Positions 3,552 to 35,912 of a stretch of 64,000 bases of DNA are shown here, in pieces. Origin of the DNA: Methanothermococcus thermolithotrophicus DSM 2095 (GTDB lineage Archaea; AGJL01; Methanococci; Methanococcales; Methanococcaceae); assembly GCF_946463545.1 (NCBI RefSeq), contig NZ_OX296583.1, forward strand, positions 310,001 to 374,000, in the 5' to 3' direction. The position numbers were made by a program, and so were the translations under genes. Positions within the stretch are counted from its first letter, which is position 1. Every line of letters starts with the position of its first letter. The notes under the pieces are model-generated. The model was not told where the DNA came from, did no database searches, and was given only the letters and a program-made list of their open reading frames with translations.

Positions 3552-4863
3552 AACCATTACCTTTTTTGAACATCAAAAGAAAACCTTTAAAGAACTGGAA
3601 AAAGAAGAACTATCAAAAAATGAAGTTAAAAAACTTATAAAACTAAACGATAAACTAAAAATTTTTGAAATCGGTTATAGCTCAGTAAATGCAAAACAGT
3701 TTGTAGGAGCTCTGAAAATCAAAAACAAAACCATTCAAATATTACCTAAGATATACAACAATGAAGAAAACAAAGAAAAAGAGGCCCTAACTAACCTTTT
3801 ATACATGCTTTCCTACACAAAAAAACTAAAAATAAGAGAAGATATTGCAAACCTAACAAAAAATAATGATTTATTTGAAATTTACATTTACCTTTTTGCA
3901 AAAAATCTGTTAAAGGAGATCGAAAAAGGATTTTATAAAGACTATAACAAAAAGGAAGAAAATTTAAACTTTTTAAAGGGAAAACTAAACACAACTAAAC
4001 AGATAAAACACAATATAATAAACAAACATAAACTCCACTGTACTTACAAAGAATTTTCAGAAAACAACCTAATAAATCAAATTCTAAAATATACTATTGA
4101 ACTATTGAAAAACATAACAAAAAGTTCAAAGAATAAAAAATTATTGGATAATTTGAGTTTTATTTTTGAGGACGTTGAATATAAAATCATAACACTAAAT
4201 GACTTTAAAAAAATCCACTTCAACAGAATGAGCGAGAGATTTAAATACTATGTCGAGATGGCGGAGCTCTTTATTTTAAATTCATCGATTAATTTAAATT
4301 CAAAAGATTTTCATACCTTTTCTTTAATTTTTGATATGAATACCTTGTTTGAAGAATTTATTGGAAATATTGTAAAGAACCATAAGGATGAGATTTTTGG
4401 AAATGAAAACTTGAATGTTCATTTGCAACATACTAAACATTATTTATTAAGAGCTGCGAAAATCGAAGACTCTCAAGGTACCGAAGATTCCTTTAATTTT
4501 TCCGTAGATAAAAATAATAGGGGTGCTTTTAGATTAATTCCAGATATTGCAGTGCTAAAGGAAAATGAACCTTATTTAATAATTGACACAAAATACAAAA
4601 AATTAGACCAAACTAAACCGTATAGTAATATCTCCCAGTCTGACATTTACCAGATGTTTGCCTATCTGAAGAAGTATGATTGTAAAAAAGGAATCCTATT
4701 GTATCCAAAATATAATGAAGAGATTAAAGAAACCTTTTACATAGACAATAAAACGATATTGCATATAGTGCAGATTGATTTAAAATATAACATGTTTACT
4801 GGAAGAACCCACTATATCAATAAAATCAAAAAAGAACTATCCAGACTAATGGACGAAATTTAA
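3538..4863 (+). CDS. mcrC: McrC-like nuclease subunit of the McrBC restriction system
   Basis: A 441-residue protein of the McrC family, which stimulates McrB GTPase and carries the PD-(D/E)xK nuclease. Seen: an N-terminal region with FVGALKIKNKTIQILPKIY (about residues 55-75), a middle family motif TLFEEFIGNIVK, and the C-terminal nuclease core with LIPDIAVLKENEPYLIIDTKYKKL (shown here only as a location, about residues 333-356), where the Asp and the DTK triad supply the metal-binding acids and Lys. The ATG follows GGGGAAAATA and overlaps the end of mcrB by 14 bp, a coupled arrangement. The gene looks intact and would cleave DNA with a modified base; which base is unknown. Confidence 0.9.
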   Translation: MGRNKTITFFEHQKKTFKELEKEELSKNEVKKLIKLNDKLKIFEIGYSSVNAKQFVGALKIKNKTIQILPKIYNNEENKEKEALTNLLYMLSYTKKLKIREDIANLTKNNDLFEIYIYLFAKNLLKEIEKGFYKDYNKKEENLNFLKGKLNTTKQIKHNIINKHKLHCTYKEFSENNLINQILKYTIELLKNITKSSKNKKLLDNLSFIFEDVEYKIITLNDFKKIHFNRMSERFKYYVEMAELFILNSSINLNSKDFHTFSLIFDMNTLFEEFIGNIVKNHKDEIFGNENLNVHLQHTKHYLLRAAKIEDSQGTEDSFNFSVDKNNRGAFRLIPDIAVLKENEPYLIIDTKYKKLDQTKPYSNISQSDIYQMFAYLKKYDCKKGILLYPKYNEEIKETFYIDNKTILHIVQIDLKYNMFTGRTHYINKIKKELSRLMDEI

Positions 4864-4924
4864 CGTGTTTTTTTGTAATTATGACACCGTTAAGTTTTTA
4901 TAGTGTGCTACAAAATTATTCATT

Positions 4925-5090
4925 ATGGGGCTTTTTAACATGTTTTTGGCTTATACTGTGTTATTGGTCTTTTTTTAGGTGCCGGATTTATTGGCACACT
5001 TTAGCACGACAACCGCATCAATCCCATCTTGATAGTGGTTATCTTGCTATTGCTCAAGGTCATAAATAGTGAACTAAAAGTCACTATTTT
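4925..5090 (+). ncRNA. Candidate structured RNA with four successive hairpins, upstream of ablA
   Basis: Seen directly: hairpin 1, GTGCC 4979-4983 with GGCAC 4993-4997; hairpin 2, AACC 5011-5014 with GGTT 5037-5040 and ATCAA 5017-5021 with TTGAT 5029-5033 (heptaloop); hairpin 3, ATCTTG 5041-5046 with CAAGGT 5055-5060; hairpin 4, nine perfect pairs 5064-5072 with 5081-5089, running into a short T stretch. A TATA-like TTTTTATA near 4895-4902 would place a start around 4925. The 5' end is a guess. It could be a free small RNA, or a remnant of a mobile element. Expression unknown. Confidence 0.45.
5064..5090 (+). terminator. Nine-pair hairpin followed by T-stretch
   Basis: AAATAGTGA at 5064-5072 pairs perfectly with TCACTATTT at 5081-5089 around an eight-base loop, and the 3' arm runs into TTTT. 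It could end the candidate RNA upstream of ablA. Archaeal termination depends mainly on U-tracts, so the hairpin may instead stabilise a 3' end. Confidence 0.4.
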
Positions 5091-5136
5091 AAGCAGGGGA
5101 TTTATCCAATGATTTTGATGTAAGGTTTTATTTGAT

Positions 5137-5144
5137 TTATATTT
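5137..5144 (+). promoter_or_regulatory. TATA-like box for ablAB
   Basis: TTTATATT about 72 bases before the ablA start, giving an expected transcription start near 5165. A homologous operon is salt-induced in methanogens, but no specific operator was recognised here. Confidence 0.4.
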
Positions 5145-5208
5145 GCCACATACTTTCCATAGGAACATGTGGATATAATAGCCCCGCAATTGATAAATAA
5201 GGAGGCAT

Positions 5209-6525
5209 ATGATGGAAAAAATATTTGATAAAAAGCATAAAGATTTTGCAGAAAGAATATCAGAAAACGTAAGCTTAGAAGAATGGTACGACTGGAAATG
5301 GCAGTTAAAAAATTCAATAAGAGATATAGAGACTTTTGAAGAAGTGTTGGGAATAAAATTCCCTGAAGATGAAAAGGCAGAATTGCAGAAGGCGGCAGAT
5401 GTATTTCCACTATCCATTACTCCATATTATGCATCTTTGATAGACGTAAAAAACTTTAGAGACGATCCTATTTTTAAGCAGGCTTTTGTTGGAGTGGAAG
5501 AATTAATAACAGAAAATTTTGAAATGGCTGACCCATTGGCTGAAGACAGCGATTCTCCAGTTCCAGGATTAACTCACCGTTATCCAGATAGGGTTTTACT
5601 CTATGTTAGCCATGCCTGTGCCGTATACTGTCGTCACTGTACACGTAAAAGGAAAGTTGGAGACGTAGATAGTATTCCGTCAAAAGAACAGATACAAAAA
5701 GGGCTGGACTATATCCGAGACAACCCACAAATAAGGGATGTTCTTTTATCAGGGGGAGATCCTTTACTACTATCTGACGATTATCTAGACTGGATTTTAA
5801 CTGAGCTCTGGGACATACCACATATCGAAGTTGTTAGAATCGGTACAAGAGTTCCTGTTGTCCTGCCTTATCGTATTACCGATGAATTGGTAAATATGTT
5901 GAAAAAACACCATCCCCTGTGGATAAATACACACTTCAACCATCCAAAAGAAATAACAAAATCTTCAAAAAATGCATTGAGAAGCTTGGCAGATGCAGGA
6001 ATTCCTTTAGGAAATCAAACTGTACTGTTACGAGGTGTCAATGACTGCCCATATGTTATTAAAAAACTCAATCAAAAACTGGCTGCAAATAGGGTAAGGC
6101 CTTACTATCTCTTCCAGTGTGATTTGTCAGAGGGGTTATCACACTTCCGTACATCCGTAAGAAGAGGTATTGAAATTATTGAAAGTTTAATTGGACATAC
6201 AAGTGGATTTGCAGTCCCAAGATATGTGGTGGATGCCCCAGGAGGGGGAGGAAAAATACCAGTCATGCCTAACTATGTAATTTCATGGGGAACTGATAGA
6301 GTTATTTTAAGAAACTATGAGGGAGTTATCACGACCTATAAAGAACCGGAACATGGTGGCAGCGATTGTAATAACGATTGTGTAAACTGTACGAGATGTT
6401 TGGATACTGAAGGGGAAGAACACGATTTAGTTGGAATAGAGAAATTGTTATCTAATTCAGATAAAACCATATCTCTAATCCCACAAGGAACCAGAAGAAT
6501 TGAAAAAAGGGAGAACGATGGATAA
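5209..6525 (+). CDS. ablA: Lysine 2,3-aminomutase
   Basis: Radical SAM enzyme converting L-lysine to beta-lysine, the first step to the osmolyte N-epsilon-acetyl-beta-lysine. The radical SAM cluster motif is C137-AVY-C141-RH-C144, and the pyridoxal phosphate lysine is K349 in PGGGGKIPV. Other family segments include [10 protein letters not shown] (about residues 181-190), [11 protein letters not shown] and VLLRGVND. At 438 residues it matches clostridial and methanogen homologues, with a Cys-rich C-terminal tail ([11 protein letters not shown]) near 386-396. The start ATG follows AAGGAGGCAT; a second ATG immediately after it is possible. The stop overlaps ablB by eight bases, so the two are one operon. 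Confidence 0.96.
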
Positions 6526-16729: not shown

Positions 16730-17278
16730 ATGCCAGTCGCAGCAATAATGAGGGAGGAAATTGATATCCCTGAAAATGTCTCTGTCGATATAAACGGCAG
16801 TGAAGTTGTTGTTAAATCAGGCGGAACAGAACTTAGAAGAGAACTTTCTTACCCAAACATTGTCATAAAAAAAGAAGAAAATAAAGTAGTTATAGAAAGT
16901 ACCTTCCCAAGAAAAAAACAGGCTGCCATGATAGGAACATACAGGGCACATATTCAAAACATGATCAAAGGAGTTACAGAAGGCTTTGAATACAAATTAA
17001 AAATAAGATATGCCCACTTCCCTATGAAAGTTAGTGTTAAAGGTAATGAAGTAATTATAGACAACTTCTTAGGGGAAAAATTCCCGAGAAAAGCAAAAGT
17101 CATGGAAGGAACCAAAGTCAAAGTCAGCGGTGAGGATGTTATTGTTACAGGGGCTGACAAAGAAAAAGTAGGGCAAACTGCTGCAAACATAGAACAGGCC
17201 ACAAAAGTCAAAGGAAGGGACATTAGAGTATTCCAGGACGGAATTTACATCGTAGAAAAAGCTGGAAAAGTATTGTAA
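16730..17278 (+). CDS. rpl6: 50S ribosomal protein L6 (uL6)
   Basis: 182 residues, two repeated domains near the factor-binding site. Seen: [38 protein letters not shown] and [20 protein letters not shown]. Start at the ATG after GGAGGTATTAATT; an in-frame upstream TTG at 16715 precedes that site and is unlikely. Confidence 0.97.
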
Positions 17279-17353
17279 GGATTTATAAATCGTAGATTTG
17301 TAAATCCCTAAATCCGAAGGATTTTGAAGGCCAGCAAATCCGAAGGATTTGCT
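17279..17353. repeat. Three back-to-back hairpins between rpl6 and rpl32e
   Basis: GGATTTA 17279-17285 with TAAATCC 17301-17307, continued by AAATC 17287-17291 with GATTT 17295-17299. Then AAATCC 17310-17315 with GGATTT 17319-17324, loop GAA. Then AGCAAATCC 17333-17341 with GGATTTGCT 17345-17353, loop GAA. The last, with its GAA loop, recurs nearly identically at 29682-29700 after the Sec61beta gene. The first begins on the base after the rpl6 stop. Confidence 0.75.
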
Positions 17354-17382
17354 TGGACCAGAAAAGAAAAAACGGTGGTCCT

Positions 17383-35714: not shown

Positions 35715-35912
35715 AATATCACCAAAATTAGAAATTATATAAATGAAACCATTTAAAAACGTATTTTATTAATCCCATTAAGTTTTTAAATGGTTTCAAA
35801 GTTTTCACTATATATCAATCAAAGATATAATTTAGATCAAAATAAATCATTAAGTAAAAAAGAATTATGAGTTAACCTACAATAGGTCGTCCTTTATAGT
35901 ATTTATAATTTA

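What the first reader, a model, noticed from the sequence alone, without database searches (positions are those of the whole stretch)
4925..5092. Chain of four hairpins upstream of ablA: possible new structured RNA
Within about 110 bases four stem-loops follow each other without gap (4979-4997, 5011-5040, 5041-5060, 5064-5089), the last with nine perfect pairs ending in T's. The block is richer in G+C than its surroundings, a known mark of structured RNA in AT-rich archaeal genomes. No gene explains it. A TATA-like box precedes it (about 4895) and a separate one for ablA follows (5137), so it reads as its own small RNA between a restriction system and an osmolyte operon. A relic of a mobile element is the main alternative.
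Basis: partly seen in the sequence, partly recalled or inferred. Interest (0 to 1): 0.68.

Follow-up and report, generated by a model that had tools for sequence, protein, structure and literature searches.

The report
Possible RNA switch before osmolyte gene
In a methanogen, the folded stretch in front of the salt-protection gene ablA looks less like a separate small RNA than like the folded start of ablA's own message, whose first bases appear to decide whether the ribosome site is open; this is a computer prediction from two genomes and has not been tested in cells.

Summary
The block is single-copy, matches no Rfam or protein family and nothing useful in plasmids, phages or viral contigs. 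It is not conserved: the only close relative with the same ablA upstream region (G009) has a diverged, weakly folded middle. An independent conserved small RNA is therefore not supported.

What is conserved lies on either side. A core promoter (4887-4902) and presumed start (AUGGGG, 4925) are shared with G009, flanked by two 14-bp direct repeats. In both genomes the predicted RNA from that start to ablA is closed by a helix between its 5' G-run (4926-4932) and a C-run before the ribosome site (5180-5186), with one compensatory pair change. The same C-run otherwise covers ablA's Shine-Dalgarno. Removing the first 12 bases lowers predicted site openness at 60 C from 0.97 to 0.31 (G000) and 0.90 to 0.39 (G009); shuffles match this 0/400 and 2/400 times.

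Best reading: the hairpins are the body of a structured ablA 5' leader that may control translation. Two genomes, a post hoc test and no expression data limit this.

The parts
4859..4872 (+). First copy of a 14-bp direct repeat (TTTAACGTGTTTTT), upstream of the core promoter; possible operator
   Evidence: 13/14 identical to the second copy; conserved in G009 at spacing 70; shuffles 5/2000 and 4/2000
4887..4902 (+). Conserved core promoter (CCGTTAAG plus TATA box TTTTTATA)
   Evidence: Within the 61-bp, 80% match to G009, E 3e-9
4925..4932 (+). Presumed transcription start (A4925, inferred from box spacing, same 30 bases in G009) and 5' strand UGGGGCU (4926-4932) of the leader's closing helix
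   Evidence: no transcript data
4934..4947 (+). Second copy of the 14-bp repeat (TTTAACATGTTTTT)
4979..4997 (+). Hairpin 1 of the leader body (7 bp)
   Evidence: not conserved in G009
5002..5049 (+). Hairpin 2, long and imperfect, about 18 bp
   Evidence: 5000-5052: z -5.3 on +, -4.4 on -
5050..5123 (+). Stem-loop 3: outer stem 5050-5063/5109-5123, tip hairpin 5064-5089 with 9 perfect pairs
5136..5142 (+). Possible proximal TATA box (TTTATAT); would give a start near 5163 without the 5' G-run
   Evidence: Sequence; less well kept in G009
5146..5172 (+). Hairpin 4 (CCACAT/ATGTGG and TTCC/GGAA); 5' arm sequence conserved in G009, which also forms a hairpin here in another register
5180..5186 (+). 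C-run AGCCCCG: pairs with the 5' end (closing helix) or with the Shine-Dalgarno (sequestor)
5199..5205 (+). Shine-Dalgarno AAGGAGG of ablA
   Evidence: Sequence; accessibility
5212..6525 (+). ablA, lysine 2,3-aminomutase (start MEKIF as in G009; an ATG at 5209 precedes it)

Best explanation
The hairpin chain is the body of a roughly 287-nt structured 5' leader of the ablA (N-epsilon-acetyl-beta-lysine osmolyte) mRNA, not a free-standing RNA. Transcription starts near 4925 from the conserved promoter at 4887-4902. The first nucleotides (UGGGGCU) pair with the C-run AGCCCCG at 5180-5186 and close the leader into one domain, which leaves the Shine-Dalgarno (5199-5205) open. When that helix is absent (5' end bound, processed or not yet paired, or a shorter transcript from a proximal start near 5163), the same C-run pairs with the Shine-Dalgarno and covers it. 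The leader would thus be a two-state translational switch, possibly coupled to a regulator that binds the paired 14-bp repeats around the promoter. Shown: fold strength, promoter conservation, repeats, and the alternative pairings computed in two genomes. Inferred: the transcription start, that the RNA is made, that the switch works, and its signal (salt or intracellular ions would fit the gene).
For: Promoter and presumed 5' end conserved in G009. The same closing helix in independent folds of both leaders, with one both-sides change (C4931-G5181 versus G2360-C2617); pairing 0.98-1.0 from 37 to 65 C; shuffles 6/400 and 1/400. The C-run pairs with the Shine-Dalgarno when the 5' end is removed or GGGG is changed to AAAA, in both genomes. 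Openness 0.97 to 0.31 and 0.90 to 0.39 at 60 C, shuffles 0/400 and 2/400. Only 1 of 624 comparable deletions at 52 other gene starts reaches 0.5; robust to the start position. Whole window leader more stable than shuffles at 65 C (z -3.6, 0/300).
Against: Only two genomes and one strictly compensatory pair. The test was designed after seeing the folds. The 5' end and the Shine-Dalgarno are both G-rich, so one C-run can pair with either without being selected for it. The hairpin body is not conserved and the G009 leader is only mildly structured (z -1.6 at 37 C, -2.3 at 65 C). At 37 C the effect is weak (11/300 and 22/300). Methanococcus ablA leaders do not show it. No transcript data; ablA might use the proximal promoter only.
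Confidence: 0.45

Rival explanations
1. A regulated promoter with incidental RNA structure: the paired 14-bp repeats and the core promoter are the functional element (a DNA-binding regulator of ablA), and the hairpins and the closing helix are neutral by-products in unconstrained leader DNA.
For: Repeats and promoter are the best conserved part; the hairpin body is diverged and its fold is not kept in G009.
Against: The block is the strongest fully intergenic fold in the window; the closing helix and the Shine-Dalgarno effect recur in both genomes.
Confidence: 0.3
2. Independent small RNA: transcribed from the box at 4895, ending after the 5064-5089 hairpin, with ablA using the separate proximal promoter at 5137.
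For: Strong fold, own conserved promoter, a second TATA-like box before ablA.
Against: No homologue of the block in 35 other genomes; fold not conserved in G009; the 9-bp hairpin continues into a longer stem up to 5123; the closing helix ties the 5' end to the ablA ribosome site.
Confidence: 0.15
3. Relic of a mobile element or of a degraded gene.
For: Slightly higher G+C; imperfect inverted repeats with both strands folding; a restriction system next door.
Against: Single copy in its genome; nothing useful in plasmids, phages or viral contigs (the one plasmid hit is 33 bp in the promoter, E 0.3); no family for any frame; no significant translated match. The block lies inside an interval whose two ends align with G009 and whose length is about the same, and the mcrC end lies outside it.
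Confidence: 0.05

Closest known systems
Na+-I riboswitch (DUF1646 motif, Rfam RF03071), found in tandem with a c-di-AMP riboswitch upstream of ablA in Dehalobacter sp. CF (PMC9337991)
   Same: Structured RNA in front of the same gene, lysine 2,3-aminomutase, with osmolyte supply as the output
   Different: No match to the Rfam model at this locus; bacterial, acts on a transcription terminator; here the predicted effect is on the ribosome site and the body is not conserved
Translational riboswitches and leaders that sequester the Shine-Dalgarno (general kind, own knowledge)
   Same: Two mutually exclusive helices share one strand; one hides and one frees the Shine-Dalgarno
   Different: No conserved aptamer; the freeing strand is the extreme 5' end of the RNA, about 250 nt away; not shown by experiment
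Structured 5' UTRs of Methanococcus maripaludis unfolded by the RNA chaperone TRAM0076 (PMC6705878)
   Same: Hairpins in 5' UTRs affecting expression in a member of the order Methanococcales
   Different: The 5' UTRs highlighted there are 20-60 nt; this leader would be about 287 nt with long-range closure

Membership tests
Na+-I riboswitch (RF03071) | Match to the Rfam covariance model at the locus | tested here: not met
   No Rfam match at E <= 10 in 4860-5215; targeted search over 36 genomes gives no hit over the cut-off and none at G000:C1:314925-315208
c-di-AMP, lysine or any other Rfam riboswitch | Match to an Rfam model | tested here: not met
   All 4227 families, E <= 10, no match; also none in relatives' ablA regions at E <= 1
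Independent small RNA | Own promoter | tested here: inconclusive
   A conserved promoter precedes it, but it may be that of ablA
Independent small RNA | Conserved sequence or structure with compensatory changes in homologues | tested here: not met
   No homologue of the block; fold not conserved in G009
Independent small RNA | Discrete transcript | not testable with these tools
   No RNA data available
Translational leader switch (Shine-Dalgarno sequestor / anti-sequestor) | Mutually exclusive helices that expose or cover the Shine-Dalgarno | tested here: met
   Computed only, in two genomes
Translational leader switch (Shine-Dalgarno sequestor / anti-sequestor) | Covariation of both helices across several genomes | tested here: inconclusive
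   Two genomes; one both-sides change and compatible one-sided changes
Translational leader switch (Shine-Dalgarno sequestor / anti-sequestor) | Response of translation to a signal | not testable with these tools
   Needs reporter assays
Mobile element relic / MITE | Several copies, or similarity to a transposase or to mobile DNA | tested here: not met
   Single copy; no family or similar DNA

The most novel reading that the evidence does not exclude
A new archaeal class of leader that controls osmolyte synthesis: the extreme 5' end of the ablA mRNA reaches across about 250 nt of fast-evolving hairpins to hold the ribosome site open, so that loss or capture of the 5' end, or use of a second, shorter start, shuts translation, with salt or ions as the likely signal.
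Probability: 0.25. Interest if true: 0.75.

Novelty: new variant of a known kind. Interest (0 to 1): 0.48.

Why it matters
The abl operon is salt-dependent in Methanosarcina mazei, and M. maripaludis needs it to grow at high salt (work reviewed in PMC1224877). I found no described mechanism for how an archaeon senses salt at this gene in the papers I could search. Bacteria put Na+ and c-di-AMP riboswitches in front of the same gene (PMC9337991). A structured leader at archaeal ablA that exposes or hides the ribosome site would be a parallel solution by unrelated RNA, and it makes sharp predictions that a reporter assay can test.

Tried and rejected
Rfam at gathering threshold and at E <= 10: nothing but a tRNA elsewhere in the window. 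DNA similarity in plasmids, phages and viral contigs: nothing useful. Coding remnant: a frame reading HVFGLYCVIGLFLGAGFIGTL looked protein-like, but it has no family and only chance-level matches. Tiny ORF at the presumed start (MGLFNMFLAYTVLLVFF* in the window, MGVLNMFFSTDLSLLIFL* in G009): too short and T-rich to judge, and not kept in Methanococcus. Covariance model of the block: no true homologue. Regulon search with the repeat motif: most other hits lie inside genes, none clearly a promoter site. Bacterial-type promoter and terminator scan: not informative for an archaeon. Methanococcus ablA leaders: conserved among themselves but without this switch.

Full report
Setting. The window is G000:C1:310001-374000 of a 1.71-Mb single-contig genome, the only one held for its genus, in a family of 22 held genomes. 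The finding lies between mcrC (ends 4863; Pfam McrBC) and ablA (lysine 2,3-aminomutase; Pfam LAM_C, Radical_SAM); an acetyltransferase in the place of ablB follows. The organism is probably Methanothermococcus thermolithotrophicus or a near relative (inference from genome size, kinship and gene content, not shown). That species switches to N-epsilon-acetyl-beta-lysine at NaCl above about 1 M (PMC1224877). The growth temperature used below (about 60 C) rests on that inference.

The observation. The block 4979-5092 folds far better than dinucleotide shuffles (z -4.7, 0/200; 0/300 at 37 and at 65 C). By GC-corrected energy it is 4th of 8520 windows scanned on both strands of the 64 kb and the strongest fully intergenic one. 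The proposed hairpin 5041-5060 competes with 5002-5049 and is not in the best fold. The minus strand folds nearly as well, and the G+C excess is modest (0.39 against 0.33 for the window).

Is the block conserved? No. As DNA it has no relative in 35 other Methanococcales genomes, and nothing useful in plasmids, phages or viral contigs; it is single-copy. A covariance model made from it alone finds only itself plus weak hits; the hit at the homologous place in G009 (E 0.035 for its genome) comes from the 5' 25 bases, with most stem pairs deleted or broken. Rfam has no match. No reading frame matches a protein family, and a translated search gave only weak scores.

What is conserved. G009 has an 89%-identical ablA with a different upstream neighbour. 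Its upstream region aligns with the window from just before the mcrC stop codon to ablA. The best part is 61 bp (80%, E 3e-9): a BRE-like CCGTTAAG and a TATA box (4887-4902) and, exactly 30 bases after the start of the box in both genomes, ATGGGG. Given usual archaeal spacing (established knowledge), transcription should start near this ATG (4925). Two 14-bp direct repeats, TTTAAC(A/G)TGTTTTT in the window and the same with one change in G009, flank the core promoter at spacing 75 and 70; shuffles give as good a pair 5/2000 and 4/2000 times. The lengths from presumed start to ablA are similar (287 and 303 bases), so the block looks like diverged leader sequence rather than a recent insertion.

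A shared closing helix. Folding each whole leader separately gives the same outermost helix: window U4926-GGGGC-U4932 with A5180-GCCCC-G5186, and G009 (L137) U2355-GGGGGU-U2362 with G2615-ACCUCC-A2622. Pair by pair (window/G009): U-G/U-A, G-C/G-C, G-C/G-C, G-C/G-U, G-C/G-C, C-G/G-C (both sides changed), U-A/U-A. The pairing probability is 0.98-1.0 from 37 to 65 C; with the 5' 25 nt kept and the rest shuffled, 6/400 and 1/400 reach the observed value at 37 C.

A predicted switch. Without the 5' end, the same C-run pairs with the Shine-Dalgarno: GCCCC 5181-5185 with GGAGGC 5201-5206 in the window, ACCUC 2616-2620 with GAGGU 2647-2651 in G009. The predicted openness of the Shine-Dalgarno falls from 0.97 to 0.31 and from 0.90 to 0.39 at 60 C when the first 12 nt are removed; shuffles that keep the 5' end and the ribosome site reach this 0/400 and 2/400 times. 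At 37 C the effect is weaker (11/300 and 22/300). On 52 gene starts of the window, 1 of 624 comparable deletions reached a difference of 0.5. The result holds for starts from 8 nt upstream to 1 nt downstream of 4925. Starts further upstream, at or before 4907, lower the openness of the full RNA to about 0.6-0.7, and deletions that begin after the G-run have almost no further effect.

Limits. Only two genomes carry the element, one pair is strictly compensatory, and the test was formed after looking at the folds. Both the 5' end and the Shine-Dalgarno are G-rich, so a single C-run can pair with either; the shuffles control for this only in part. The middle of the leader is not conserved, which speaks against a classical aptamer. 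Methanococcus ablA genes also have a conserved stretch between a TATA box and the gene, but it is different in sequence and shows no such switch. No transcript data were available.

Comparison with the known. Bacteria place Na+-I and c-di-AMP riboswitches before ablA (Dehalobacter, PMC9337991). The locus is not a member of the Na+ family, and the predicted mechanism (ribosome site, not terminator) differs. In M. maripaludis, structured 5' UTRs and a chaperone that unfolds them are described (PMC6705878), so leader-level control is plausible in this order.

Verdict. The hairpins are real and unusual; a separate conserved small RNA is not supported; a mobile relic is unlikely. The best reading is a structured ablA 5' leader closed by its own 5' end, with predicted control of the ribosome site, at about 0.45 confidence. 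The main rival is a regulated promoter with incidental RNA structure.

Noticed in passing
L138, L139, L140, L141 (G001-G004), about 150 bases upstream of ablA: Methanococcus ablA genes have a different but well conserved stretch of about 80 bases after a TATA box (AAAAAAAGGATGTATAAGCCTTTTTAAATTTTGAAACC...GGTTTTTC...GGGATACCCC), with an inverted repeat at the presumed start; function unknown.
   Followed up: partly
window 17278-17355: Strongest GC-corrected fold of the window: tandem palindromic hairpins with repeated AAATCCGAAGGATTT.
   Followed up: no
window 35744-35798: A 17-bp perfect inverted repeat (GAAACCATTTAAAAAC...GTTTTTAAATGGTTTC) with a 21-base loop, mostly intergenic.
   Followed up: no
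window 5209-5214: Two ATGs in a row; comparison with G009 (MEKIF) and Shine-Dalgarno spacing favour 5212, not 5209, as the ablA start.
   Followed up: yes
window 4925-4978 and L137:2354-2410: Hydrophobic mini-ORFs of 17 and 18 codons begin exactly at the presumed transcription start in both genomes and end at a T7 tract; possibly a leader peptide, more likely a by-product of T-rich DNA.
   Followed up: partly
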